This document shows, piece by piece, positions 33,372 to 45,423 of a stretch of DNA of 60,007 nt (positions are counted from its first letter, which is position 1; each line of letters begins with the position of its first letter). The notes beneath the pieces are model-generated. The model saw only the letters and a program-made list of their open reading frames with translations, had not been told where the DNA came from and did not search any database. The position numbers and the translations under genes were made by a program. The stretch comes from Acidobacteriaceae bacterium. Its GTDB lineage: Bacteria; Acidobacteriota; Terriglobia; Terriglobales; Acidobacteriaceae. Where the stretch lies: NCBI GenBank assembly GCA_003138365.1, contig PLFY01000115.1:17848-77854 (forward strand), read 5' to 3'.

Positions 33372-34673
33372 ATGGCCGCTTCCCAGCAATCTCGCGCACC
33401 TGACCAATCAGCGAATCCAGCCGGTTCATTGGCCAAGAAACATCCAGCCTTGGGCGGAGCCGCTCTCTCAATCCGGCTGTGGAGAGCCCATGGGACCGGC
33501 AACGCAGAAGAGCTGTCCTGGGATAGCAAAAACGCTGCCGTGTGTCTTGCGCTGGACCTGATTGCGGCTTCAAAATGGGTGACCTCCGCAACCCATGGCA
33601 GGTACCTCGTGGCTGGATTTGCCGGCATTGAACCGGCACTCTTGACCGCTCGCCGCCTGCAATGGGCTATTCAGGGGTTCTCAGACTCTGATCGGTTTAC
33701 CGGTACGGCTATTGCGGTGCTGGTTCATTCCGCTGAAGATCTGCCTGGTCTGGAGCCTGGCAATGCAGCATTGCCGCCCCTTGAGAGGGCCGCGCCGGGA
33801 CAGACGCTGCTCACCCCAAAGACCTGGGAACTCTTGCGGGATCTGCCTGGGCTTCCGTTGCAGGCCGCCTCTGAGCCTGGCCTGTATGAACTCCTCTGGC
33901 ACGGCCCAGAGAAAGCGCCGAGCCGCACCTCCGACGAAGAAGCCATTTCCCGGTTCATCAAACTCCATGGTTTGGAGATCGAGACGCCGGCCCCCGCCCA
34001 GGCGCCATCCTCGAGTTCCGCGCCCGTCCTGCCTGGAACAAAGGATCTGTCTGGAGCAAGAGATCCGGGCTTGTTCCCAGCGGCGGATTCCGCGGAGAGG
34101 GTTCGCCATGATCCAGGTATTGTTGCTTTGCTTCGGCGCGGAAATCCACGATTGCTCATTGGCGCCGCGTGCGCAGTGCTCATCGTGCTTGTCATTGTGA
34201 CTGTCGCCGTCTCTCACAAGAGAACGGCGATCTCAGCGGCGAGCGTAGTTCAGCCGGCCTCATCAACTGCCGCGCCTCTTCCCAGCGGAGGACTTCCGCC
34301 ACAACCCCAGCCAACCAATCTCGCCCCGCTCACGGCTCCGGGGAACAGGACTGAGCCCGCAAAGCGCAACGTACAGACACAGAACGTACAGGCACAAAAG
34401 GATCGCAGCCAGGGAAAGTCCGGGCAAAGCGATCCAACTGCTTCCGACACGACACTATCTCAACTGAGCAAACAAAAGGCCACGGGTGGCAAGTGCGATC
34501 TTGACGCGAACCTGATCCCCAAAGCGCTTGATCAGGCAGAGAAAAGCCGGGATCAAGGCAACTACGATGCTGCTGTGAGGCAGTTTCGCTCAGTGCTTGC
34601 CTGCGAGCCCGACAACCCGCGCGCACGCAGCGGGCTGGAACGTGTTCTGTTCGCAAAGCAAACAGAAAAGTAG
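33372..34673 (+). CDS. Membrane protein with degenerate nucleotide-cyclase-like domain
   Basis: A 433-residue protein. Residues about 74-178 (HGRYLVAGFAGIEPALLTAR, then IAVLVHSAEDLP and ERAAPGQTLLTPKTWELL) follow the pattern of a class III adenylate/guanylate cyclase homology domain ('vHtGe', 'AapGqillS'). The metal-binding Asp pair and catalytic residues are not visible, so it is probably inactive and used for binding. Residues 261-281 form one transmembrane helix. A Pro/Ser/Gln-rich linker follows, then a C-terminal TPR-like unit (about 375-430, GNYDAAVRQFRSVLACEPDN). It diverges from the exported-protein gene at 33120. Confidence 0.55.
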   Translation: MAASQQSRAPDQSANPAGSLAKKHPALGGAALSIRLWRAHGTGNAEELSWDSKNAAVCLALDLIAASKWVTSATHGRYLVAGFAGIEPALLTARRLQWAIQGFSDSDRFTGTAIAVLVHSAEDLPGLEPGNAALPPLERAAPGQTLLTPKTWELLRDLPGLPLQAASEPGLYELLWHGPEKAPSRTSDEEAISRFIKLHGLEIETPAPAQAPSSSSAPVLPGTKDLSGARDPGLFPAADSAERVRHDPGIVALLRRGNPRLLIGAACAVLIVLVIVTVAVSHKRTAISAASVVQPASSTAAPLPSGGLPPQPQPTNLAPLTAPGNRTEPAKRNVQTQNVQAQKDRSQGKSGQSDPTASDTTLSQLSKQKATGGKCDLDANLIPKALDQAEKSRDQGNYDAAVRQFRSVLACEPDNPRARSGLERVLFAKQTEK

Positions 34674-34826
34674 TCTTGGATGGAGTCCACCGCAGAAGAG
34701 CCAGGACGTTGCGCCTGCATAAACCTCAATTCATCTGAGAACGATTCAGGACTGTGATACACAGGATTTGCCAGGACCGGCCGCAACAATACACAGAATC
34801 AATACGTTACAGGTGGACTTTGCAAG

Positions 34827-35552
34827 ATGGCGATGGCAAATGCAAGGATGATCCGAGGGGCAATTTGGAGATTCGTGAGCGCCAATGAAAATCGAGGGAC
34901 TGTGAAATCGGAAGGCAAAAACACGAACAGCAATGAGACCGGACAGCTCTTCCTGGGCAGCAGGTTTACGAGCGCAATGGACTATGCGCGGCTCGTCCAC
35001 ATCGAGCGGCGGAAGGGAACTGAAATTCCCTATATGGCCCATCTTATGGGGGTTGCATCCCTGGTCATGGGCGAGGCCGGTCATGCCGGGTTTCCTGTCA
35101 CTGAAGACATGGTCATCGCCGCCCTTCTTCATGACGCTGCCGAAGACCATGGGGGACTGCCGCGGCTCAAGGACATCGAGCACAATTTCGGCTCGAATGT
35201 GGCCCGCATGGTGGAGGGACTGTCGGACAGTCTTACGGAGGATCCTGAGAAAAAGCAATCCTGGCAGGAGCGCAAGGAAGCCTATATCGAACGCCTTCGT
35301 GAAGAGACTGCTGACGTCCAACTCATCTCGGCCGCTGACAAGCTCTACAACGCAAGAGCAATCCTCGAAGACTACCGGGAAATCGGGCCACGGGTTTGGG
35401 AACGATTCAAACGTGGCCGGCGGGAGCAGATTTGGTATTTCGATGAACTCCTGAAGGTTTTGAAATCGTCTGGAGCGAGCCGGATCGTGGAAGAATTGGG
35501 CCGCGTCGTCAACGAACTCAGGCAGATATCGGCTGAAGAGGCGAATCGATAA
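34827..35552 (+). CDS. HD-domain phosphohydrolase, SpoT-hydrolase-like
   Basis: A 241-residue protein. The metal motif is AALLHDAAEDHGG (H102-D103, E106-D107). An upstream His lies in IPYMAHLMGVA (His72). A distal Asp lies in LISAADKLYNARAIL. The order H...HDxxED...DkxxN and the 'FGSNVARMVEGLSD' segment match the (p)ppGpp hydrolase domain of RelA/SpoT proteins and small alarmone hydrolases. No synthetase or regulatory domain is present. The N-terminal 45 residues look unstructured and the start is uncertain. It may hydrolyse an alarmone or another nucleotide signal. Confidence 0.75.
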   Translation: MAMANARMIRGAIWRFVSANENRGTVKSEGKNTNSNETGQLFLGSRFTSAMDYARLVHIERRKGTEIPYMAHLMGVASLVMGEAGHAGFPVTEDMVIAALLHDAAEDHGGLPRLKDIEHNFGSNVARMVEGLSDSLTEDPEKKQSWQERKEAYIERLREETADVQLISAADKLYNARAILEDYREIGPRVWERFKRGRREQIWYFDELLKVLKSSGASRIVEELGRVVNELRQISAEEANR

Positions 35553-35807
35553 GCGCCGCGCCTGTGCTCAAAAAAAATCAACCATTTCCAGGCTCCTGAG
35601 GAGCGGAGAACAAGCGCGATTTCCGCCCGGATGGAGTCTTGGCGAAGGAGAGCCGGGTTCTCAACGCATCTTCCCCCATCTTCATCCAGGATCAGCCGTT
35701 TGGGGCACTGGGCCGCAATTCCGATTATTCCTTGCTTTCTTTTATTCACCGAAGTATCATCTGCTTCATTCCTCGTGTGTTTGAAATTCGCATCCCCTGA
35801 GGTCCCA

Positions 35808-37316
35808 ATGGAATCAAGATTTCCAAAGGTCGTAACGCTCCCGGCGGGCGGTCGCATGGGAAAGTTTCTGCTGCTGTTGCTCACAGGCCTTCTGCCGCTT
35901 GTTTTGTCCGGCTGCGCAACGAAGCGTCTGAAGGTTGACTTCACGGGCTTTGAAAAGGCCTATGCGCAGACCTCAAATCAAGAGTTGCTCTTGAATTTGG
36001 CGCGCCTCGAGAACCGCGATCCTACGTATTTCTTCAAGATCGGTTCAATTCAGAGCACCTATAAGATGGCAGCATCCGTGGGAGGCGCCGCTTCCTATGC
36101 GCTCCAGACCACAAATATAGCTGCCGGCTCGCCCACCGGCGGGGGCACTCCTAGTCTCAGCTATGAGAACGATCCGGTATTCACGTTTATCCCGGTCAAT
36201 GACCAGGAGAACGCGCAGCTCCTCTTGAAGCCGATCCCTCCAGAGTCATTCTACTTTCTGTATGAACAGGGCTGGCGAGTGGATCAACTTGTCCGCCTGA
36301 TGGTGGATCGACTTGAGTTGACCCGGTATGACAAGGATCAACACACCTGCACTGTCGAGACGATTCGTAACACACCGCCCAATGATTATCGTCGCGATCA
36401 AGCCTCACTCTCCAGTTATGCAACCTTTCTCAGGATCAGCGCGATCGCTTACTGGCTCCAACGGCACGGCTATCTGCTGCTTCGGGGCACAAACACCTTT
36501 GTTCCCTATTCGCTTGACAATGATCCGGGATTGGATAACAGCCCGGCTTTCATCACGAACGCACCGAAAGGCCAGGATTTCGTAAGTGCCGCGGGGAAAA
36601 CCCCAGCCGCCATTTGGCACCTTGATCCGAAGACCAAGACGTGGCTTTTAGGTGAAAAGGTGTTTAGTCCCATTTTCAGCCTCTATCCCCTTGAATCTGA
36701 CGGCACAACGCCCGGTCCAGATGTAAAGCTCGTACCAGGTATCAAGCATATTGAAGACCAGATTCGAGAAGATAGCGAAATGTCGGGGCTCCAGGAGGGG
36801 CCTGCACTGCACGAGGTTCTAAAGGAACTTGCCGCTGGTTTTACGATCGAGGGAAGCGCAAATCTACAGGACCCCTGCGCCTCAACCTCGGGCAAGTCAG
36901 CGGTATCCGCACATCTGGTGATGCGTTCCTTGATTGGACTGATGGCAGCTGCCGCTCAGGAACAGGCCCCATTTGAGGCGCTTGTGACTGCCGATCCCGC
37001 CGTGCTCCCCAGCGCTTACCTGACGCGAGAGCAAGCAGCGGCATTGGGACCTCCGCCACTCTTCCTGAAGGCAGTTCCAGCCATTGAACAGCTTCCGGTA
37101 TTGCGCTTGACGGGGTCGTCTGCGAACGAGGCAATGACGCCAATTATCCAGTTGAACTACCGAGGGAAGAATTATCGGATTGCGGACGAGAGCAGCACAG
37201 CCGGCACGGATAACCAATACTGGAACCGCGACGTGTTTCGCCTCATCAACCAACTCACCTCGCAGGTAACCGTGGATATCAGCAAGTTCCCGCTGACGGA
37301 GATACTGCAGCAATAG
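35808..37316 (+). CDS. Uncharacterised lipoprotein
   Basis: A 502-residue protein. A hydrophobic N-terminus ends in LVLSGC, a lipobox with the Cys that would be lipidated. The mature part begins ATKRLKVDFTGFEKAYAQTS and NQELLLNLARLENRDPTYFF, a pattern I associate with uncharacterised proteobacterial and acidobacterial lipoproteins but cannot name. The middle is rich in Tyr, Pro and Asp with no catalytic motif visible. The start at 35808 is chosen for TGAGG 6 nt upstream. It lies 33 bp before the SLOG gene and forms an apparent operon with it and the patatin gene. Confidence 0.75.
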   Translation: MESRFPKVVTLPAGGRMGKFLLLLLTGLLPLVLSGCATKRLKVDFTGFEKAYAQTSNQELLLNLARLENRDPTYFFKIGSIQSTYKMAASVGGAASYALQTTNIAAGSPTGGGTPSLSYENDPVFTFIPVNDQENAQLLLKPIPPESFYFLYEQGWRVDQLVRLMVDRLELTRYDKDQHTCTVETIRNTPPNDYRRDQASLSSYATFLRISAIAYWLQRHGYLLLRGTNTFVPYSLDNDPGLDNSPAFITNAPKGQDFVSAAGKTPAAIWHLDPKTKTWLLGEKVFSPIFSLYPLESDGTTPGPDVKLVPGIKHIEDQIREDSEMSGLQEGPALHEVLKELAAGFTIEGSANLQDPCASTSGKSAVSAHLVMRSLIGLMAAAAQEQAPFEALVTADPAVLPSAYLTREQAAALGPPPLFLKAVPAIEQLPVLRLTGSSANEAMTPIIQLNYRGKNYRIADESSTAGTDNQYWNRDVFRLINQLTSQVTVDISKFPLTEILQQ

Positions 37317-37349
37317 CGCGTCGACAGATCGGAGCTGTCGCCTACAACC

Positions 37350-38858
37350 ATGTCCGCAGAGCAGAACGAGATCAAGTCGGCTATTCGGCTTCCATCGGTA
37401 CTCGCAATCGGATTTACGGGACACAGAAGCCTCCCGGATGAAGCGGCGAGCCGGAAGCTGGTCTGCGACTTTCTCAGAGACCAAAAGGCGGCAATCGCAG
37501 GAATCGTTTATGGAGTTTCGTCGGCGGCAGCAGGTGGCGACCTGCTGTTTGCCGAGAGTTGTGTTCAGTTGGAAATTCCACTCCGGGTGTTGTTGCCACT
37601 CCCCCAGGAAAGCTTCCGCGCTGACTTTGACCCAGTTACCTGGCTGCGCGTCGAGCAGGTATTGAGCAAGGCTGTCTCAGTTGAAGTCACCGGCGATCGC
37701 GGGCTTCGCGATGAGGACTATTACCAATGCGGCATCGAGACAGTGCAACAGAGTCAACTCATGGTGGCCCTGTGGGACGGGGAGCCGGCACGCGGAATGG
37801 GTGGGACCCAGGAGATCGTAAGTTTCGCGAGGAAAATGGGCAGGCCGGTCGTCTGGTTCCATAGTGTCACGGGATTCAAGCAGGTCTTCAATGAACCGGC
37901 TTTAAGGGAACTCGAGAAGTTGCAAGATCCGGAACTTGATTTCTTGAACGGGCTGCCGGATGACGGTGCGACGCTCCTGACGGATTCATCCACAGAATTG
38001 GCAACCGCATGGCTCGAGAAGGTTGATAAGAGTGCCAGCCGGTTTGCGCCTCAGGTTCGGCGTCTGTCTTCCATACCGATTGTGTGCACGGCGGCAGCGG
38101 CGTTTTTCAGCGGAGCGGGGTTGAAGATGCCCCACCCCGATACATGGCTGGCAATTGGAACTGGACTTGGAATTACTGCCGCTGCACTGCCGTTTGCGCT
38201 GAGGCTCCAGCCACGGCAGGTACTCTGGGCGCGAGCACGAACCGCGGCTGAAGTATGCCGCTCCCGCGTGGCTCTATGGGGTGCGCCGACTTTCGAAGAG
38301 GCGATTGGGCCTGAGATCGTTCCCGAACTTTCCGGCATGCTGATGTCTCTCAAGCTGCTGAAGGCATTCGACAGTTCCAGGAGCTCTGTATCGATCGATG
38401 AATTCAAGGAGCGCTATCGGAAGGAGCGGGTATCTGGCCAGTTGGGCTATTTCTCGCGGCACGCAGAGCAGTCTGCCGACCAGGCAAGAAGATATCGTGT
38501 CGTGAGTTGGGTTTGTATTGGATTGGCAATCCTCATTGCTGGATGGTTGTGGGTGATGGGAATGGCATTCAAGAACACTCACTTGTTTCCTGGGCAGAGG
38601 TGGCTTTCCATCGCTGTGTCGGCCCTCTTTCAACTGGCAACTATCTCGGGGGCGTTGCTCATTGTGCACGATTGCGAAAGGCGGCAGCGGCGCTATCGCG
38701 AGTTACATGACTGGCTGAAGGAATGGGATGCGGAACTCGACGCCCTGCGGACATGGCCCACGGTACTCAAGGTCGCCGGCAGAATTGAGCGAGCGCTGCT
38801 GGTCGAATTGCTGGAGTGGAAATCTCTGGTTCGAAACGTGAAACTGCCGAGGAACTGA
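37350..38858 (+). CDS. SLOG-domain protein with four transmembrane segments (SLATT-like)
   Basis: A 502-residue protein. Residues 15-175 are a SLOG (YpsA/LOG-like Rossmann) domain with GFTGHRSL (21-28), an AGGD turn (61-64), LLPLPQESF and LWDGEPARGMGGT (141-153). SLOG domains bind nucleotide-derived ligands. Residues 240-257 and 266-285 are transmembrane helices. They are followed by LWARARTAAEVCRSRVALW and later FKERYRKERVSGQLGYFSRHA, which resemble the SLATT (SMODS/SLOG-associated two-TM effector) domain. Two more helices lie at 385-404 and 417-438. Predicted to be a ligand-gated membrane effector. The patatin gene starts 4 bp after its stop. Confidence 0.72.
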   Translation: MSAEQNEIKSAIRLPSVLAIGFTGHRSLPDEAASRKLVCDFLRDQKAAIAGIVYGVSSAAAGGDLLFAESCVQLEIPLRVLLPLPQESFRADFDPVTWLRVEQVLSKAVSVEVTGDRGLRDEDYYQCGIETVQQSQLMVALWDGEPARGMGGTQEIVSFARKMGRPVVWFHSVTGFKQVFNEPALRELEKLQDPELDFLNGLPDDGATLLTDSSTELATAWLEKVDKSASRFAPQVRRLSSIPIVCTAAAAFFSGAGLKMPHPDTWLAIGTGLGITAAALPFALRLQPRQVLWARARTAAEVCRSRVALWGAPTFEEAIGPEIVPELSGMLMSLKLLKAFDSSRSSVSIDEFKERYRKERVSGQLGYFSRHAEQSADQARRYRVVSWVCIGLAILIAGWLWVMGMAFKNTHLFPGQRWLSIAVSALFQLATISGALLIVHDCERRQRRYRELHDWLKEWDAELDALRTWPTVLKVAGRIERALLVELLEWKSLVRNVKLPRN

Positions 38859-38862
38859 CAAC

Positions 38863-39948
38863 ATGAAACGGATTCTCTCGTTGGATGGCGGCGGAATTCG
38901 CGGCGTCTTCAGTCTGGAGATTCTCCTCCGCATGCAGGAGTTGCTTCGGGCAGAGTATGACTCGCGCGACTTGGTGCTCGCCGATCATTTTGATTTGTTT
39001 GCGGGTACCAGCACTGGCGCAATTATTGCCACTTGCCTCTGCTGGGGGATGCCAGTCGAGGAGATTCTTGAGCTGTATGTGAAGTACGGCAGGACTATGT
39101 TCCGGCCAGTTCCCTGGTACCGGCCCATTAAGAAGCTATTCGTTTCGCGGTATCAGGCCAAGCCTCTTTCAGAGCTTCTTCAGAGGACCTTTTCTGAAGA
39201 CGGAAACGGCCTGGTGCCGGCCATGCTCGACAGCGCTCGTTTGAAAAAACTTCTGCTTGTGGTCGTTCGCAACCATACGACCGGCTCTGCGTGGCCGATT
39301 ACCAACAATCGGAAGGCTATGTTCAACGATCGCGCGTTGCCAGATTGCAATCTGGACATTCCGCTCTGGAAAGTGGTCAGGGCTAGCACGGCGGCGCCGG
39401 TTTACTTCGATCCTGAAGTAATTGAACTGGGAGGTCGACCCTCAGTTTTTGTGGATGGTTCCGTGACCCCCTATAACAATCCGGCTCTCATTGCCGTGTT
39501 GACGGCTGTGTTGCCGAGTTATCGGATTGACTGGTTGGCCGGGCCGGAAAACATTCGCCTGATATCCCTGGGAACCATGCGGTTCTCCTCTGGCTTGACA
39601 GCGAAGATGGGAAAACTATGGCTGGGCAACAACGTGTCCCTGATCCCTTCAGCATTGATTCAGGGAATCGCGTGGCAGCAGGACTATCTTTGCCGCTGTC
39701 TGGGTGAATGTATTTTTGGCGACACACTCGATATGGAGATTGGGGATCTGGTCGGCACGCAGCTTCCGGGGTCGCGCTGGTTCAGCTATGTGAGGTACAA
39801 CCAGTCATACAATGCCGCCGCTCTGGCAAAGTTGGTTGAGACAGACTCGCAGCTATCCAAGCTCGATGCGATCCAGGCAATTCCCTTTCTGAGAGAAGTC
39901 GGTCTGGCGTATGCAAAAGAGCATGTAAGAATGGAGCATTTGATCTAG
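38863..39948 (+). CDS. Patatin-like phospholipase
   Basis: A 361-residue lipid acyl hydrolase. DGGGIRG (8-14) is the oxyanion-hole motif and GTSTG (48-52) carries nucleophile Ser50. VDGSVTPYNNP supplies the dyad Asp198. There is no signal peptide, so the enzyme is cytoplasmic and could attack the inner membrane from inside. Patatins of this kind act as effectors in some anti-phage systems (for example CapV in CBASS). Here the 4-bp spacing to a SLOG-membrane protein gene suggests a joint function. No cyclase of the CD-NTase type is seen nearby. Confidence 0.88.
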   Translation: MKRILSLDGGGIRGVFSLEILLRMQELLRAEYDSRDLVLADHFDLFAGTSTGAIIATCLCWGMPVEEILELYVKYGRTMFRPVPWYRPIKKLFVSRYQAKPLSELLQRTFSEDGNGLVPAMLDSARLKKLLLVVVRNHTTGSAWPITNNRKAMFNDRALPDCNLDIPLWKVVRASTAAPVYFDPEVIELGGRPSVFVDGSVTPYNNPALIAVLTAVLPSYRIDWLAGPENIRLISLGTMRFSSGLTAKMGKLWLGNNVSLIPSALIQGIAWQQDYLCRCLGECIFGDTLDMEIGDLVGTQLPGSRWFSYVRYNQSYNAAALAKLVETDSQLSKLDAIQAIPFLREVGLAYAKEHVRMEHLI

Positions 39949-40141: not shown

Positions 40142-41296
40142 TTGTTATCAATGAGATCTGCACGCGGAAGTGTGCTTTTGCTGCTGGCTGCAGTTTTGCC
40201 GATTTCGCTGTATGCCCAGGTTAGTAGCGGGAATACCGATAACGATCCAACCACCGCGTTGGTAGCACGGCTATCGACGGATGTTCCCGCGGTGGGCACG
40301 GGAACCTTGGCGACTTCCGGGGATTCCCTGAGTCCGCTCGATACCGCCGCGCAGCCGTCAACAGCCCTCGCGCCAGAATCCGCGCCATCCCAGGCTGGTT
40401 CCACCTCGGACGAACCGCCGGGCCAGGGCAGCACGGTCGGATACATTGACAATGCAATTGTCGGTTCAGAGGTCCGCGTGCGGTTTGACGCCGGCTTTGG
40501 CGATAGTCAACCTGACCTTGCCGAGTTCTTCTATGCGCAATGCGGCTGCGATGGCGGCACAGCCGCGGGCCCAAAGCCCGGCCTGGCAACGGATCTGAAC
40601 TTCCAGCAACTCTACCTGCGCGGAGAATACGCCCCGAAGAAGTTCTTCTCGTTCATGCTCGAACTGCCGCTGCGCTTCATCCAGCCTGTTAGCTTCGCTC
40701 CGGCCACCGTTTCCAGCGCCAGCCCAGGCTTCGGCGATCAAGGCGGTCTTTCGGACGTTTCCGCGGGATTCAAGCTGGCGGCGGTGGCTTCAAAGCAGCA
40801 GTACCTCACGTTCCAGCTTGTGGCGACCTTTCCCTCGGGTGATTCCGGCAAGGGCCTGGGCACCGACCACTACACCGTCGCGCCCTCGCTGCTTTATTAC
40901 CGCAAGGTGACGGACAGGTTTTCCTTGGAGGGTGAACTTGGCGACTCGCATCCCATCGGCGGCGACACTCCGGGGTTTGCAGGGGACGTGGTTGAGTATG
41001 GCATCGGGCCGAGCTACGTTGCATACAAGAGCGAAAAGGTACAGTTCGCTCCTGTGCTCGAACTCGTCGGTTGGAGAATCTTCGGGGGCATGTGGAACAA
41101 CCCCGCACTCCTCGGAGTTGTTCCAGGGTTGCCCCTTGATACCGCAGACGGTTCCAACATCGTCAATCTGAAAGGCGGGGCTCGGACCTCCATAGGAAAG
41201 AATCAATCTTTCTATGTGGGTTATGGCCACGCTTTGACCACGGCTAATGTCTGGTACAAGCAGATTCTCCGGATCGAGTACCGCCGCACCTTTTGA
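40142..41296 (+). CDS. Putative outer-membrane beta-barrel protein
   Basis: A 384-residue exported protein. The signal peptide ends ISLYAQ. A low-complexity Ser/Thr/Ala/Pro segment follows (about 30-100). After that come alternating hydrophobic/aromatic beta-strand patterns, such as FMLELPLRFIQPV, LTFQLVATFPSG and YTVAPSLLYYRK. The terminus is ILRIEYRRTF with a final Phe, typical of outer-membrane insertion. A TTG at 40142 has GGAGG 10 nt upstream, and the ATG at 40151 is the alternative. It may be a channel or porin. Function is unknown and no clear operon partner is seen. Confidence 0.65.
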   Translation: MLSMRSARGSVLLLLAAVLPISLYAQVSSGNTDNDPTTALVARLSTDVPAVGTGTLATSGDSLSPLDTAAQPSTALAPESAPSQAGSTSDEPPGQGSTVGYIDNAIVGSEVRVRFDAGFGDSQPDLAEFFYAQCGCDGGTAAGPKPGLATDLNFQQLYLRGEYAPKKFFSFMLELPLRFIQPVSFAPATVSSASPGFGDQGGLSDVSAGFKLAAVASKQQYLTFQLVATFPSGDSGKGLGTDHYTVAPSLLYYRKVTDRFSLEGELGDSHPIGGDTPGFAGDVVEYGIGPSYVAYKSEKVQFAPVLELVGWRIFGGMWNNPALLGVVPGLPLDTADGSNIVNLKGGARTSIGKNQSFYVGYGHALTTANVWYKQILRIEYRRTF

Positions 41297-41377: not shown

Positions 41378-43912
41378 CTAATGTTTGTCGATCCAGTTGC
41401 GCAATGTGGCGACCTTCGTGCGCAGGTCGTCCAGCGCAGGGCTTGGCTTCGCCAGTTGGTCGATAAGATCGCGGGCACTGTCGCTGGCTTTTGCTGCCAG
41501 TGAAAACTGGTGATCCGTTCCCAGCGCCCGCGCCAGGTTGTCGTAGTACGTAGCCGCCTCTGTTTTGTATTCGCGGTTGGCCGGTTCTCTCGCGCGCAAT
41601 GGGGCAACGGTCACAATCGCTTGCTCAAATGAGTCCTCGGCTTTCTCCAGCTCTTTCTGCCTCAGATAAACCATCCCCACATTGTTGTCCACACGGGCCA
41701 GGTCCTGCGCTGGATCGGGATCGCCGGCGTTCTGCTCCGGCGCGGCCGTTCCATTGGCGACGAGGGGCTTTAACAATTCGGCAGCGCGCTGGTAGTCCGG
41801 GACCGGATCGCCGTGGCAATCGAAGAGCAGAATCCCGAGGTTGTAGTAGCTGCGCGCCAGCTCCTGTTGATAGGCGCGATTTGCCGGTGCGTCCTGATGA
41901 AGGCGTTGTTGCAGTGTGATCGCCTGCTCGTACTCCTTGCTCGCGTCCGCCGCAGTGTACCGCACTGGCTTTTGCTCGCTCTCCAGCCATGTGCGGAGCG
42001 TCTCGCCGAGCCAATTGTGGCAGTATGCCAGGTGCTGCCGATATTCCGGATTGCCGGGATGCTCCTGCGAGAGTTTTTCAAATTGAGCGATGGCCTGGTT
42101 GTATTCATTCACGGCATCCTGGCGCAGCAGGCGAAGACGATCGATATCTCCCAGGCGGGAGTGCGCCATGGCCATTTCCGCGGCAAGTTTTTCGTTGCGA
42201 GGTTCTTGCTGGGCAAAGTTCTGATAAAAGAGTTTTGCCTTGTCCAGAAGTTGGCCGCGGAACTCTTCCATCTCCGGCGAATCGGGAGCTTCCCTGGATT
42301 GATGCGCGCCTGCGGAAGAAAGGCTCTCATCCACAGCTTTCTTGGCCAGCATCAGGTTCAGCTCCGCACGAGATCGCTGCTGGTATACCACCCAGGTGAG
42401 TGTCCCAATCGCCAGCAGCAGGGCGGTAAGCGCATAAATGGCAATCTGCCGGGCACGTTTTCTGGCGACTTCTTTTTGGCGTTCCGCCTCGCGTTGCTTT
42501 TCGCTGCGGTCAAGGAAGTCCATGGCCTGCGCGAAATTCGCATCGTAGCGCTCCGCCCACGCCGCTGTGGGCTGGTTCTTGCGCCGCCATTGCAAACCGG
42601 TTTCAAGCTGCGGATCAATCCACAGACCGCCAGAAGATTCTGCCCACCAGGAAGCGGCTTGCGCAATGCGAATGTAACTGACGGCGGACTCGCGTTCTTC
42701 ATCCGTCCAGGCAATCAGCCGCGTCCAGCAACGCATCAAGCTTTCGTGCGAGAGATCCACGATGGTGCGCGTGTCAAGCGGCACGCCGGCTTGCGGCGCG
42801 AGGAATGAACGGCCAGCGCGGCGGAAGATATCAACGACTTGTATAACATCCGGCTCAGGAACTTCGCAGACAGCCGAGAGCTCTTGAATCGAGCAAGCCC
42901 GGCGCACCCCTCGGGGATCGGAGTAAGTATCGGTCAGCGCCTTGAAAGCTTTTTCGGCGATCTGCTGGCCGCCGTCGAAACCAGCTTCACGAAAGGCCTC
43001 CTCCGCGTGGATGGACAAGGCCTTTTGAAGACCCCCAATGGCCTCGTAATCGGCGATATCGATGCTTGGATCTGCCTGGCGGTGGGCTTCCCAGTGATCC
43101 CACGTGCGCATTAAAGCGTGTTGCAGCACCGGAAGTTGATCGTGATCGTCTCCGAGATCGTTGAGCAAGCGCAGCACGAGACGTTGCGCGATGGACCCGC
43201 CGGCGACCGCGACGGGACCCGTGATGGCAGAGCGCAATTCGTCGCGAGTCATGCGCGGTATCAGATACAGACCGTCATTGACGGCTTCGGGAAGACCCTG
43301 AAACTCAATGCAATCGCCAAGGAAGTCCGAGCGCATGGTCAGGACTATGTAAATGGGAACGTCTTGCTGCTTCGTGGCTTCGAGGAGAAGTTTGAAGAAA
43401 GCCACCGCCTCGTCTCTGGAGTTACCACCACGGTCGCTGCGCCGGAAGCGGAATAACTCTTCAAACTGGTCCACCACAATCAGGACATTATCCTGCGCGG
43501 GAATCTGCGCCTGACGCACGGCTTGCACAATTCCCAGCGTGCTTCTATGCAGCGTGGCTTCCAGCAAAATGCGGTTGGTGCTGGCCAGTTCTCCCTCTGT
43601 TCCGAGGGCGTCGGGCGCGTCCATGGCGGCCGCCAGGTTTCCGATGGGGTTATCGCCCGGACGGCAAACCACTATGCGCCAATTCGATCCTGCCTTCAGC
43701 ATGAAACCGCTTTGCAGGGCAGGGATCAAGCCGGAGCGCACCAGAGAGGATTTTCCGGTGCCAGAGCTGCCGACCACGAGCAAAAAGCGCGTGGTGCGGA
43801 GGCGATGCAGCAGTTCGTCTATTTCCTGCTCGCGACCGAAAAAAAGATGCTCTTCGTCGGCCTCGAAGGGACGGAGACCTGGAAAAGGATTCGACAGTGT
43901 TTTCGATTCCAT
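41378..43912 (-). CDS. nSTAND-type NTPase with transmembrane helix and TPR-like repeats
   Basis: An 844-residue protein. NPFPGLRPFEADEEHLFFGR is the N-terminal signature of novel STAND NTPases. Walker A is GSSGTGKSS (48-56) and Walker B is VLIVVDQFEEL (143-153). A winged-helix-like arm follows to about residue 460, then one transmembrane helix (489-510). Residues about 560-840 are TPR-like repeats (for example EYEQAITLQQRLHQDAPANR). STAND proteins oligomerise on sensing a trigger, and the repeats would be the sensor. The start at 43912 is chosen because the longer frame overlaps the TIR gene. It is 20 bp downstream of the TIR gene on the same strand. Confidence 0.85.
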   Translation of the reverse strand: MESKTLSNPFPGLRPFEADEEHLFFGREQEIDELLHRLRTTRFLLVVGSSGTGKSSLVRSGLIPALQSGFMLKAGSNWRIVVCRPGDNPIGNLAAAMDAPDALGTEGELASTNRILLEATLHRSTLGIVQAVRQAQIPAQDNVLIVVDQFEELFRFRRSDRGGNSRDEAVAFFKLLLEATKQQDVPIYIVLTMRSDFLGDCIEFQGLPEAVNDGLYLIPRMTRDELRSAITGPVAVAGGSIAQRLVLRLLNDLGDDHDQLPVLQHALMRTWDHWEAHRQADPSIDIADYEAIGGLQKALSIHAEEAFREAGFDGGQQIAEKAFKALTDTYSDPRGVRRACSIQELSAVCEVPEPDVIQVVDIFRRAGRSFLAPQAGVPLDTRTIVDLSHESLMRCWTRLIAWTDEERESAVSYIRIAQAASWWAESSGGLWIDPQLETGLQWRRKNQPTAAWAERYDANFAQAMDFLDRSEKQREAERQKEVARKRARQIAIYALTALLLAIGTLTWVVYQQRSRAELNLMLAKKAVDESLSSAGAHQSREAPDSPEMEEFRGQLLDKAKLFYQNFAQQEPRNEKLAAEMAMAHSRLGDIDRLRLLRQDAVNEYNQAIAQFEKLSQEHPGNPEYRQHLAYCHNWLGETLRTWLESEQKPVRYTAADASKEYEQAITLQQRLHQDAPANRAYQQELARSYYNLGILLFDCHGDPVPDYQRAAELLKPLVANGTAAPEQNAGDPDPAQDLARVDNNVGMVYLRQKELEKAEDSFEQAIVTVAPLRAREPANREYKTEAATYYDNLARALGTDHQFSLAAKASDSARDLIDQLAKPSPALDDLRTKVATLRNWIDKH

Positions 43913-43932
43913 CGACCTTTCAATCTCCTCTT

Positions 43933-45423
43933 TCAACCTTTGAGGCTGACGATGAATTGCTGTAGCGAGGCCGCGGAAAGACCCTCGAATTGCGGGAGGA
44001 CCATGGCGTCGTGGGTGCGAAAGCGTTCTTTCTCCGGACTTCGCGGCGGCGCCATCACGATGCCGACTACAGGCGCGGGTTTGGTCCGCCCGTAACCCGG
44101 AGCCTTCTGGACCTCGCGGAGCTTCCGCCGCACCCACAACTCATTGGTTGATCCGTAAAAAATGAGCACCCCGTCGCAGCTACGGAGATTATCGTCGTGG
44201 TATTCGCGGATCTCCGCTTCATCGCCTTCAAAGACAGACTGCAGAACCTCAAAGTGGTCGTACAGGTGCTCCACCCATGCGGACGCCGCTTCGCTGTCCC
44301 GTTGATCGTGAATGACGTAGAGGCTTGGGTGGCTGCCGCTCTCGACTTGCGGAGCGGGGCTTTGCACTGAGGGCGCCGGCGCGAGCGCGGGCGCCGAAGG
44401 GCGCTTGAGCTTATCGTGGATCACTGTCCGCAGATCCTCAAAGAAGGTCTCCAGCAGATCCGCACCCTCCATCATGCCTGGATCAAGACGCAGGCGCTCG
44501 ATAAGTTTCACTTGCCGGTCATCCTCAACCTGCAAGCCCGGCGGTATCCAGAGCAGGCGCGAAAACTTTCCGCTTTTTCCCCTCTCGATCGCCAACTGGT
44601 TCTGGATTTCCATCAGCGAGTCCGTGCCGCCCTCGGGAACGGAACTATGATTTCTGCCCACCAGCATGACCGATAGTTGACACTTTTCGAGATCCTCGGT
44701 GACGGCGGCCTTTACCTCTGAAGCCACTGAAGGCAACGGGCGAGTGGGAAAAACCATGTAACCGTGCTGCTGCAAATCGCGTCGCAGCGTCTCGCGCTGC
44801 TCGCGCAGATCGCTGGTGGTCTCCGCCAGAAAAACTCCCTGGCCCACAGGTTGGGATGCGAGCTTCGCATCCGGATGTTCGAGCTTCTCCAGCAGTTGAC
44901 AAATGTCGTGCGCCAGGTCGTCCAGTTTCAGCCAGAAATCGCGCTGCGCCTCCGGGCCAAAAATTTCATTCAACTCCCGGATTCTGCCGGAATCGGGATC
45001 GGTCTTGAAAAACTCGTAGCCCAGCACCAGTTGCAGTTCGGGAGGGTGTTTATCAATGGATACGGGAGTCTTCAGCACCTTGAAGATGCGAAGCTTGTCT
45101 TCAAAACGAATTCCGCCCTGGGATTCCGCGGCTTGTGAGAAAGCACTCAGCTCCTTGAGCGCCCAGTCGGATTTTACGTACCGCGGCGACACTACCGTGA
45201 TCAGGACGGCCACGCGCCGTAGTTTCTCGACCAGTGTCTCGGCAAAATGATCGTTTCCCTGCAATTTGGGATCACGCCAGATATGCGGCTGCTTGCCCAG
45301 AAGCTGGGCAACGCGCACTTCCAGAGCGCGATGAAGATTGGTAACCCAACCCTTTTGCCCCTCGATCAACTCAACGTTGTCAAGGTGCGCGTAGCTGATA
45401 AAGGCGTCGCTTTCAAAATTCAT
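43933..45423 (-). CDS. TIR-domain protein with DUF4062-like and second TIR-like domains
   Basis: A 496-residue protein with three domains. Residues 5-175 are a TIR domain: DAFISYAHLDN, WRDPKLQGNDHF, VVSPRYVKSDWALKELSAF. Glu91 sits at the position of the NADase catalytic Glu. Residues 195-335 resemble DUF4062 (VFLAETTSDLREQRETLRRD, then LQQHGYMVFP). Residues 366-496 are another TIR-like fold (SLYVIHDQRDSEAASAWVEH, CDGVLIFYGSTNELWVRRKL). The start at 45423 has AAAGGA 7 nt upstream. It is the first gene of a pair with the nSTAND ATPase, so TIR would be the effector or signal-making part. NADase activity is inferred, not shown. Confidence 0.82.
   Translation of the reverse strand: MNFESDAFISYAHLDNVELIEGQKGWVTNLHRALEVRVAQLLGKQPHIWRDPKLQGNDHFAETLVEKLRRVAVLITVVSPRYVKSDWALKELSAFSQAAESQGGIRFEDKLRIFKVLKTPVSIDKHPPELQLVLGYEFFKTDPDSGRIRELNEIFGPEAQRDFWLKLDDLAHDICQLLEKLEHPDAKLASQPVGQGVFLAETTSDLREQRETLRRDLQQHGYMVFPTRPLPSVASEVKAAVTEDLEKCQLSVMLVGRNHSSVPEGGTDSLMEIQNQLAIERGKSGKFSRLLWIPPGLQVEDDRQVKLIERLRLDPGMMEGADLLETFFEDLRTVIHDKLKRPSAPALAPAPSVQSPAPQVESGSHPSLYVIHDQRDSEAASAWVEHLYDHFEVLQSVFEGDEAEIREYHDDNLRSCDGVLIFYGSTNELWVRRKLREVQKAPGYGRTKPAPVVGIVMAPPRSPEKERFRTHDAMVLPQFEGLSAASLQQFIVSLKG

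What the first reader, a model, noticed from the sequence alone, without database searches (positions are those of the whole stretch)
41378..45423. Three-domain TIR protein paired with a membrane nSTAND-TPR ATPase
The first gene fuses TIR, a DUF4062-like fold and a second TIR-like fold. The second, 20 bp downstream, is an nSTAND NTPase with a transmembrane helix and TPR-like repeats. TIR plus STAND is the logic of known abortive-infection and Avs-type defences, but the split arrangement with three stacked Rossmann-like folds does not match a named system I know. The TIR keeps a Glu at the NADase position (Glu91), and both Walker motifs are intact. An anti-phage or self/non-self sensing role is inference.
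Basis: partly seen in the sequence, partly recalled or inferred. Interest (0 to 1): 0.7.

Follow-up and report, generated by a model that had tools for sequence, protein, structure and literature searches.

The report
Envelope-linked TIR–STAND gene pair
Two neighbouring bacterial genes, a three-part TIR enzyme and a membrane-bound STAND switch protein, form a conserved pair that in its closest relatives sits beside an outer-membrane protein gene, which suggests a self-destruct alarm watching the cell surface.

Summary
Window 43933-45423(-) encodes TIR–DUF4062–TIR-like (496 aa); 41378-43912(-), 20 bp downstream, encodes nSTAND1–TM–TPR (844 aa) with intact Walker motifs. The pair is a real module: an nSTAND1 gene directly follows the TIR gene in 16 of 16 full-length loci with readable flanks (Acidobacteriota, plus Caballeronia and Hymenobacter plasmids), and the paired nSTAND1s form one clade (100/100) apart from 11 unpaired ones.

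New points. (1) Only the first TIR keeps a catalytic Glu (E91, 17 of 17). The DUF4062 fold, reported in 2026 as an antiphage NADase (Swarozyc), has Gln at that position (16 of 17), so it is probably an adaptor or ligand-binding fold. (2) In the six closest loci an outer-membrane protein gene lies beside nSTAND1: a small barrel found in 3 of 392 sampled phylum genomes, or a TonB-dependent receptor. (3) A TM helix and charge bias predict periplasmic repeats, though a TM is common in nSTAND1 generally. (4) SLATT-like or TPR-S/cyclase genes recur nearby.

Best reading: an envelope-sensing STAND that activates a TIR NADase, a new variant of TIR–STAND conflict systems. NADase and antiphage activity are inferred; nothing was assayed.

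The parts
43933..45423 (-). TIR–DUF4062–TIR-like protein, 496 aa (P0002)
   Evidence: ORF; Pfam; 17 full-length relatives aligned
44869..45423 (-). First domain (res 1-185), canonical TIR; catalytic-position Glu91 at 45151-45153
   Evidence: TIR_2 46.1 bits; aligned to RUN1 and other TIRs of the PDB; Glu in 17 of 17
44389..44856 (-). Middle domain (res 190-345), DUF4062 with Gln274 (44602-44604) where canonical DUF4062 has its catalytic Glu
   Evidence: Pfam; hhalign to canonical DUF4062 E 2.9e-14, probability 98.5; Gln in 16 of 17; control
43936..44340 (-). Third domain (res 362-496), degenerate TIR/DUF4062-like fold, no Glu at the aligned position
   Evidence: hhalign E 9.8e-5 and 4.3e-4; weak model; 0 of 17 have Glu
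41378..43912 (-). nSTAND1–TM–TPR protein, 844 aa (P0001)
   Evidence: PF20703 E 8e-98; Walker A at 43748-43771, Walker B at 43460-43486, TM segment at 42389-42445
40142..41296 (+). Predicted outer-membrane beta-barrel, tail to tail with nSTAND (81 bp); partner in the close relatives
   Evidence: Phenol_MetA_deg 22.7 bits, cut-off 22; signal-peptide-like start and C-terminal Phe by eye; homologues in 3 of 392 phylum genomes, all three beside the pair, and in G024
37350..38858 (+). SLATT-like membrane protein with an N-terminal SLOG-like part (SLOG label by eye); optional neighbour
   Evidence: NCBIfam SLATT_1 34.8 bits (cut-off 41), DUF4231 22.4 bits (cut-off 24.7); relatives beside the pair in L031 and L069
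38863..39948 (+). Patatin-like phospholipase, possible effector; optional neighbour
   Evidence: Patatin 91.9 bits; NCBIfam CBASS_lipase 122 bits, under the cut-off of 200
35631..37316 (+). Predicted lipoprotein with a relative near the Caballeronia plasmid pair; optional neighbour
   Evidence: phmmer E 1e-8 to L069:1278-2675; lipobox by eye; no Pfam match

Best explanation
A two-gene biological-conflict module, probably antiphage. The nSTAND1 protein is anchored in the inner membrane, NTPase in the cytoplasm and variable repeats in the periplasm; in the window's lineage it works with an outer-membrane protein encoded beside it. A disturbance or ligand at the envelope moves the repeats, the NTPase exchanges nucleotide and oligomerises, and this gathers the cytoplasmic TIR protein through its two pseudo-TIR folds. 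The clustered first TIR then cleaves NAD+, stopping growth or making a nucleotide signal. Shown here: the pairing and co-inheritance, the kept Glu91 and lost DUF4062 Glu, the linkage to an outer-membrane gene in one subclade. Inferred: topology, oligomerisation, recruitment, NADase activity, trigger and antiphage outcome.
For: nSTAND1 directly follows the TIR gene in 16 of 16 readable loci; eight of them overlap by 1-8 bp. Paired nSTAND1s are one clade, 100/100; 0 of 12 unpaired nSTAND1 places have the TIR gene upstream. Identity matrices of the two proteins correlate, r 0.937. E91 17 of 17, Gln274 16 of 17, no Glu in the third fold 0 of 17. TM after the NTPase in 15 of 15 partners, more Lys/Arg on the NTPase side in 14 of 15. 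Variable C-termini: TPR, WD40, RDD, GH19. Outer-membrane protein gene beside nSTAND in 6 of 6 loci of the window's subclade. Patchy spread: 12 of 396 phylum genomes, 2 of 60 kin genomes own included; copies on plasmids. DUF4062 and TIR NADases act in antiphage defence (PMC13174449, passages and sections read).
Against: No assay. A TM is common in nSTAND1 in general: 11 of 12 unpaired ones have at least one segment, 8 of them a single one after the NTPase, so topology does not mark this system. No outer-membrane gene was recognised beside the other ten loci. TonB-dependent receptors are abundant in such bacteria, so L024 and L025 alone are weak. No PADLOC system model matched. No phage or viral contig relative. 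The r of 0.94 is also what joint vertical descent would give. The window barrel is convergent, not co-transcribed, with nSTAND.
Confidence: 0.55

Rival explanations
1. Thoeris-like signalling: the STAND-gated TIR makes an ADP-ribose-derived messenger, and a neighbouring SLOG-like protein (SLATT pore type, or TPR-S with cyclase) reads it and acts, with the patatin as a further effector.
For: A SLATT-like or TPR-S/SLOG-like gene near 6 of 16 loci: window, L023, L026, L028, L031, L069; in L031 it starts 4 bp inside the end of nSTAND. TPR-S: 52 places in 392 genomes, 3 within 5 kb of a pair against about 0.004 expected if uniform. TPR-S is predicted to sense NAD+-derived signals (recalled; Burroughs and Aravind 2020, not held).
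Against: Absent as far as seen from 10 of 16 loci; not on the sister genome's barrel contig; in the window the genes are on the other strand; the SLOG label is mine, no library named it; conflict genes cluster, so the chance estimate is too low.
Confidence: 0.2
2. Cytosolic sensing as in Avs: the repeats face the cytoplasm and bind a phage protein; the membrane helix only localises the complex.
For: STAND-TPR and STAND-WD40 sensors of phage proteins or cell-death signals are cytosolic (recalled; APAF-1 in PMC13174449).
Against: Lys/Arg bias in 14 of 15 places the NTPase, hence not the repeats, inside; GH19 domains after the helix in L029 and L034 and adjacent outer-membrane genes fit the periplasm.
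Confidence: 0.13
3. Surface or nutrient signalling that is not immune, in the manner of FecA-type TonB-receptor signalling, with a TIR scaffold instead of an enzyme.
For: TonB-dependent receptors downstream of nSTAND in L024 and L025; many TIRs are scaffolds (recalled); no defence island seen.
Against: E91 invariant in 17 of 17 argues for catalysis; patchy spread and plasmid copies are unlike a housekeeping regulator.
Confidence: 0.12

Closest known systems
Swarozyc (DUF4062 NADase antiphage system; PMC13174449)
   Same: A DUF4062 fold in a TIR-like protein; NADase logic of defence; patchy spread
   Different: Here DUF4062 has Gln for the catalytic Glu, the active TIR is a separate N-terminal domain, no portal-binding auxiliary domain was found, and an nSTAND1 gene follows
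Human TEP1/NWD1-type DUF4062–STAND–repeat proteins (PMC13174449)
   Same: DUF4062 combined with a STAND NTPase and C-terminal repeats
   Different: Here split in two genes, with an extra active TIR, a catalytically altered DUF4062 and a membrane helix
Avs antiviral STANDs (recalled)
   Same: STAND NTPase with C-terminal TPR sensor
   Different: No effector fused to the NTPase (domain starts at res 9); effector in the gene upstream; membrane helix; no Avs model matched
Thoeris (recalled)
   Same: TIR enzyme, possible SLOG-type reader nearby
   Different: No ThsB model for P0002; no SIR2–SLOG ThsA recognised among the neighbours scanned; STAND partner instead
nSTAND1 conflict proteins with EADs (PMC8195603, PMC10907252; passages)
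   Same: nSTAND1 NTPase with variable C-terminal domains
   Different: No effector-associated domain ahead of the NTPase; strict pairing with this TIR protein
FxsC TIR-like protein (NCBIfam NF040588)
   Same: Best NCBIfam match of the first TIR (E 1.3e-13)
   Different: 51 bits against a cut-off of 130; no FxSxx partner recognised beside the window pair

Membership tests
Swarozyc | DUF4062 domain | tested here: met
   Pfam 26.6 bits over 24.7; hhalign E 2.9e-14
Swarozyc | Catalytic Glu of DUF4062 (E97 in KpSwz) | tested here: not met
   Gln274; Gln in 16 of 17 relatives; Glu in 24 of 24 reliably aligned canonical controls
Swarozyc | C-terminal HTH/winged auxiliary domain that binds the phage portal | tested here: inconclusive
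   No such Pfam match; the C-terminal part looks DUF4062-like, but no direct comparison with the auxiliary domain was made
TIR NADase | TIR fold with Glu at the catalytic position | tested here: met
   TIR_2; E91 aligned to RUN1; 17 of 17
TIR NADase | NAD+ cleavage | not testable with these tools
   needs assay
nSTAND1 NTPase | PF20703 over cut-off with Walker A and B | tested here: met
   329 bits over 27.1; motifs
Avs | Effector fused N-terminally to the STAND NTPase | tested here: not met
   nSTAND1 starts at res 9 of 844
Avs | Match to a PADLOC model | tested here: not met
   P0001 matches only mad8 (E 0.0019) and LmuB (E 0.074)
Thoeris | ThsB-type TIR with ThsA partner | tested here: not met
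   No ThsB model for P0002 in PADLOC; in NCBIfam only ThcB4 at 13.5 bits, cut-off 220; relatives L034 and L031 hit ThsB weakly; no ThsA among scanned neighbours
CBASS | CD-NTase with effector | tested here: inconclusive
   Patatin matches CBASS effector models but is under the NCBIfam cut-off; no CD-NTase among the neighbours scanned, not all window genes were scanned
FxsC | NF040588 score over the curated cut-off | tested here: not met
   51.2 bits, cut-off 130

The most novel reading that the evidence does not exclude
A trans-envelope immune receptor: an outer-membrane barrel or TonB-dependent receptor acts as sentinel (phages often use such proteins as receptors; recalled), passes the alarm through the periplasmic repeats of a membrane-spanning STAND, and the STAND switches on a cytoplasmic TIR NADase held by two pseudo-TIR folds. 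Infection would be sensed at adsorption or DNA entry, before phage proteins are made.
Probability: 0.28. Interest if true: 0.87.

Novelty: new variant of a known kind. Interest (0 to 1): 0.63.

Why it matters
The STAND antiphage sensors known to me detect phage proteins inside the cell. A STAND whose sensor arm lies in the periplasm and is genetically tied to an outer-membrane protein would be a way to sense attack at the surface. The TIR protein is also a natural contrast to Swarozyc and TEP1: a DUF4062 fold that lost its catalytic Glu yet is kept beside an active-looking TIR, which makes the role of pseudo-TIR folds testable.

Tried and rejected
Structure of the whole TIR protein from a two-row alignment: pLDDT 37, unusable. 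C-terminal domain alone: pLDDT 56, weak fold matches only. Sequence search of the PDB with P0002 or P0001 alone: nothing. Viral contigs and phage records: no relative. The one genome-contig scan, spent on the single protein, found one sister genome. The TM helix as a mark of this pair: rejected, it is common in nSTAND1. The 33-40 kb genes as fixed parts of the module: rejected, absent from the sister genome's barrel contig. First TIR related to DUF4062 by profile: no. Foreign base composition of the pair: no, GC 0.577 and 0.588 against 0.583 for the window. A Burkholderia stagnalis plasmid match (27% over 130 residues, no annotation) was not followed.

Dropped before counts: L027 (contig ends after the TIR gene) from adjacency; L032 (TIR fragments of another architecture in G183) from all counts; L097 (Caballeronia SBC1, TIR annotated as two ORFs, WD40 partner with the same protein accession as in L069) from all counts; L042 (stop inside) from the DUF4062 control; L090 from the tree. 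Corrections made on re-check: one search gave gaps of 68 bp (L025) and 45 bp (L023) because I had set starts too late; by the nearest ATG they are -4 and 30 bp. Genome searches score only the first few candidates per genome (3, 20, 12, 3, 4), so those counts are lower bounds.
Full report
What is there. On the minus strand, window 45423-43933 encodes a 496-residue protein and 43912-41378 an 844-residue protein, 20 bp apart. Pfam finds TIR_2 (res 8-103) and DUF4062 (res 197-262) in the first, and nSTAND1 (res 9-426, E 8e-98) with weak TPR in the second. The second has Walker A, Walker B and one hydrophobic segment at 490-508. The C-terminal part of the first (res 362-496) has no Pfam match; hhalign relates it to this protein's DUF4062 (E 9.8e-5, probability 30) and to canonical DUF4062 (E 4.3e-4, probability 14), while the middle domain matches canonical DUF4062 at E 2.9e-14. 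A model of it (pLDDT 56) gives no Foldseek match at E 0.001; the top hit is not a TIR, though TIR structures are frequent below it. The three-fold description is right, with the third fold least certain. The genome is taken as Acidobacteriota because a sister contig (80% identical protein, same length as G024:C275) is titled Acidobacteriaceae.

A real, mobile pair. The TIR protein was sought in 60 kin genomes (2 match, own included) and 396 genomes of the phylum (12 match, own included). That gave 15 full-length proteins; plasmid searches added Caballeronia sp. SBC2 (L069) and Hymenobacter tibetensis (L096), 17 in all. Sixteen have readable sequence downstream, and in 16 of 16 the next gene is an nSTAND1 (Pfam for 15; 60% identity to P0001 for L024). 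Gaps, by the nearest ATG, are -8 to +30 bp in 14 loci: eight overlap (seven by 4-8 bp, one by 1 bp), as in translationally coupled genes (L023 from the ORF start). L024 is about 11 bp by its nearest Met, and in L028 the frames overlap but no standard start codon was found. As a control, nSTAND1 was sought in 80 phylum genomes: 9 match at 14 places. Two places are pairs already in hand; of the other 12, none has the three-domain TIR gene nearby, only one weak 50-residue TIR match in L095 (the L085 contig ends soon after its ORF). In a tree of 15 paired and 11 unpaired nSTAND1 domains the paired ones are one side of a 100/100 branch (several long branches, one unpaired row left out). Identity matrices of the two proteins over 15 loci correlate at r 0.937, 0 of 5000 permutations as high, as joint inheritance would give. 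The pair moves and evolves as a unit.

One enzyme and two pseudo-folds. E91 aligns with the Glu of SRWCLDEL in the plant TIR RUN1 (catalytic role recalled) and is Glu in 17 of 17. DUF4062 was recently reported to be a TIR-like NADase acting in the Swarozyc antiphage system and in human TEP1 (PMC13174449: I read the abstract, the first part of Results, the Discussion, the figure legends and searched passages). Of 30 canonical DUF4062 domains, 29 could be read at the catalytic position: 27 Glu, 2 Gln. Five of the 29, including both Gln, have a long insert that makes the alignment unsure, leaving 24 of 24 Glu. In this family it is Gln in 16 of 17 and Ala in Hymenobacter, where the alignment is unsure. 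The third fold has no Glu at the aligned position in any of 17. The simplest reading: the first TIR is the enzyme, the other two bind a partner or a ligand.

Topology. All 15 partners scanned have a hydrophobic segment after the NTPase (L031 has three), and in 14 of 15 the NTPase side carries more Lys/Arg; L031 is the exception. By the positive-inside rule the NTPase is cytoplasmic and the repeats periplasmic. A segment is not special to this pair: 11 of 12 unpaired nSTAND1 ORFs have at least one, 8 a single one after the NTPase. What follows the helix varies: TPR, WD40, an RDD membrane domain (L031) and GH19 domains (L029, L034) that would suit the cell wall.

Outer-membrane partner. The gene at 40142-41296 has a signal-peptide-like start, a C-terminal Phe (both by eye) and a marginal Phenol_MetA_deg match (22.7 bits, cut-off 22); its relative in L023 matched nothing in Pfam. 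Homologues occur in 3 of 392 phylum genomes, own, G146 and G174; among 13 genomes known to hold the TIR protein, in these and G024. In all four it lies by nSTAND: 81 bp tail to tail in the window, 29 and 33 bp downstream in L023 and L028, and on the G024 contig that carries the last 55 codons of nSTAND about 750 bp away. In L024 and L025, the other members of the window's six-locus subclade (100/96), the gene after nSTAND is a TonB-dependent-receptor-like protein (39 bp gap; 4 bp overlap by the inner ATG or 31 bp by the longest start; 32% identical to each other; family matches under NCBIfam cut-offs, but Plug over Pfam's in L025). So 6 of 6 loci of that subclade have an adjacent outer-membrane protein gene. 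Such receptors are common in these bacteria, so the two TonB cases alone would be weak. Beside the other ten loci I recognised none, from ORF lists, plasmid annotation and a few Pfam tests.

Recurring soluble partners. A SLATT-like protein with a SLOG-like N-terminus (SLOG is my label) lies near the pair in the window, starts 4 bp inside the end of nSTAND in L031, and lies 452 bp upstream in L069. Proteins related to it in that N-terminal part, with TPR-S-like repeats, lie beside the pair in L023, L026, L028 and L069; a class III cyclase part was found in L023, L026 and L028 and is implied by annotation in L069. A profile of the three SLATT-like proteins matches 18 of 392 genomes. TPR-S matches 44 of 392 genomes at 52 places, 3 of them within 5 kb of a pair against about 0.004 expected if uniform (mean genome size assumed); conflict genes cluster, so this overstates the case. 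The window's lipoprotein has a relative near the L069 pair (E 1e-8). None of the SLATT-like, patatin and lipoprotein genes is on the sister genome's barrel contig, so they are optional.

Mechanism and rivals. I favour a STAND switch that senses the envelope and gathers a TIR NADase. A Thoeris-like messenger route, a cytosolic Avs-like sensor and non-immune surface signalling are the rivals. NADase activity, activation and antiphage effect are inferences.

Known or new. No PADLOC model matched P0002 and only mad8 and LmuB marginally P0001; relatives gave weak TIR or P-loop matches. Ten text searches (combinations of DUF4062, TIR, STAND, nSTAND1, FxsC, SLOG, SLATT, TPR-S, TonB-dependent, defence terms) listed no paper whose title or abstract start describes this pair. 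One search found nothing for Swarozyc, probably because the name carries an accent in print. Subscription papers are mostly not held; Burroughs and Aravind 2020 (PMC7685563), the likeliest place, is not held and known to me only from memory. PMC8195603, PMC7159879, PMC10907252 and PMC9503650 were seen as passages only. I file it as a new variant of TIR–STAND conflict systems.

Noticed in passing
33372-39948: A run of five plus-strand genes (cyclase-like/TPR by eye, HD_4, lipoprotein, SLATT-like, patatin) looks like a second conflict cassette beside the pair; lipoprotein and SLATT-like genes recur near the Caballeronia plasmid pair.
   Followed up: partly
L026:4893-7181 (-): A RyR–TPR-S–SLOG-like–guanylate cyclase protein beside the pair, and next to it a second TIR gene (L026:3040-4893) with ThsB_TIR match over the cut-off.
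   Followed up: partly
L029:10863-15071 and L034:10670-13324: GH19 (chitinase/lysozyme-type) domains at the C-terminus of nSTAND1 proteins, after the membrane helix; unusual for a STAND protein.
   Followed up: no
L097:7956-9575 (Caballeronia sp. SBC1 plasmid): The TIR gene is annotated as two ORFs while the neighbouring WD40 partner is annotated whole; the SBC2 plasmid copy is annotated as one gene.
   Followed up: no
L033:3-4526 (-): A long NHL/RHS-repeat (teneurin-like) ORF lies 205 bp downstream of the nSTAND gene on the same strand.
   Followed up: no
L128:9836-10584: In the sister genome about 750 bp separate the barrel and nSTAND ends, against 81 bp in the window; origin of the extra stretch not examined.
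   Followed up: no
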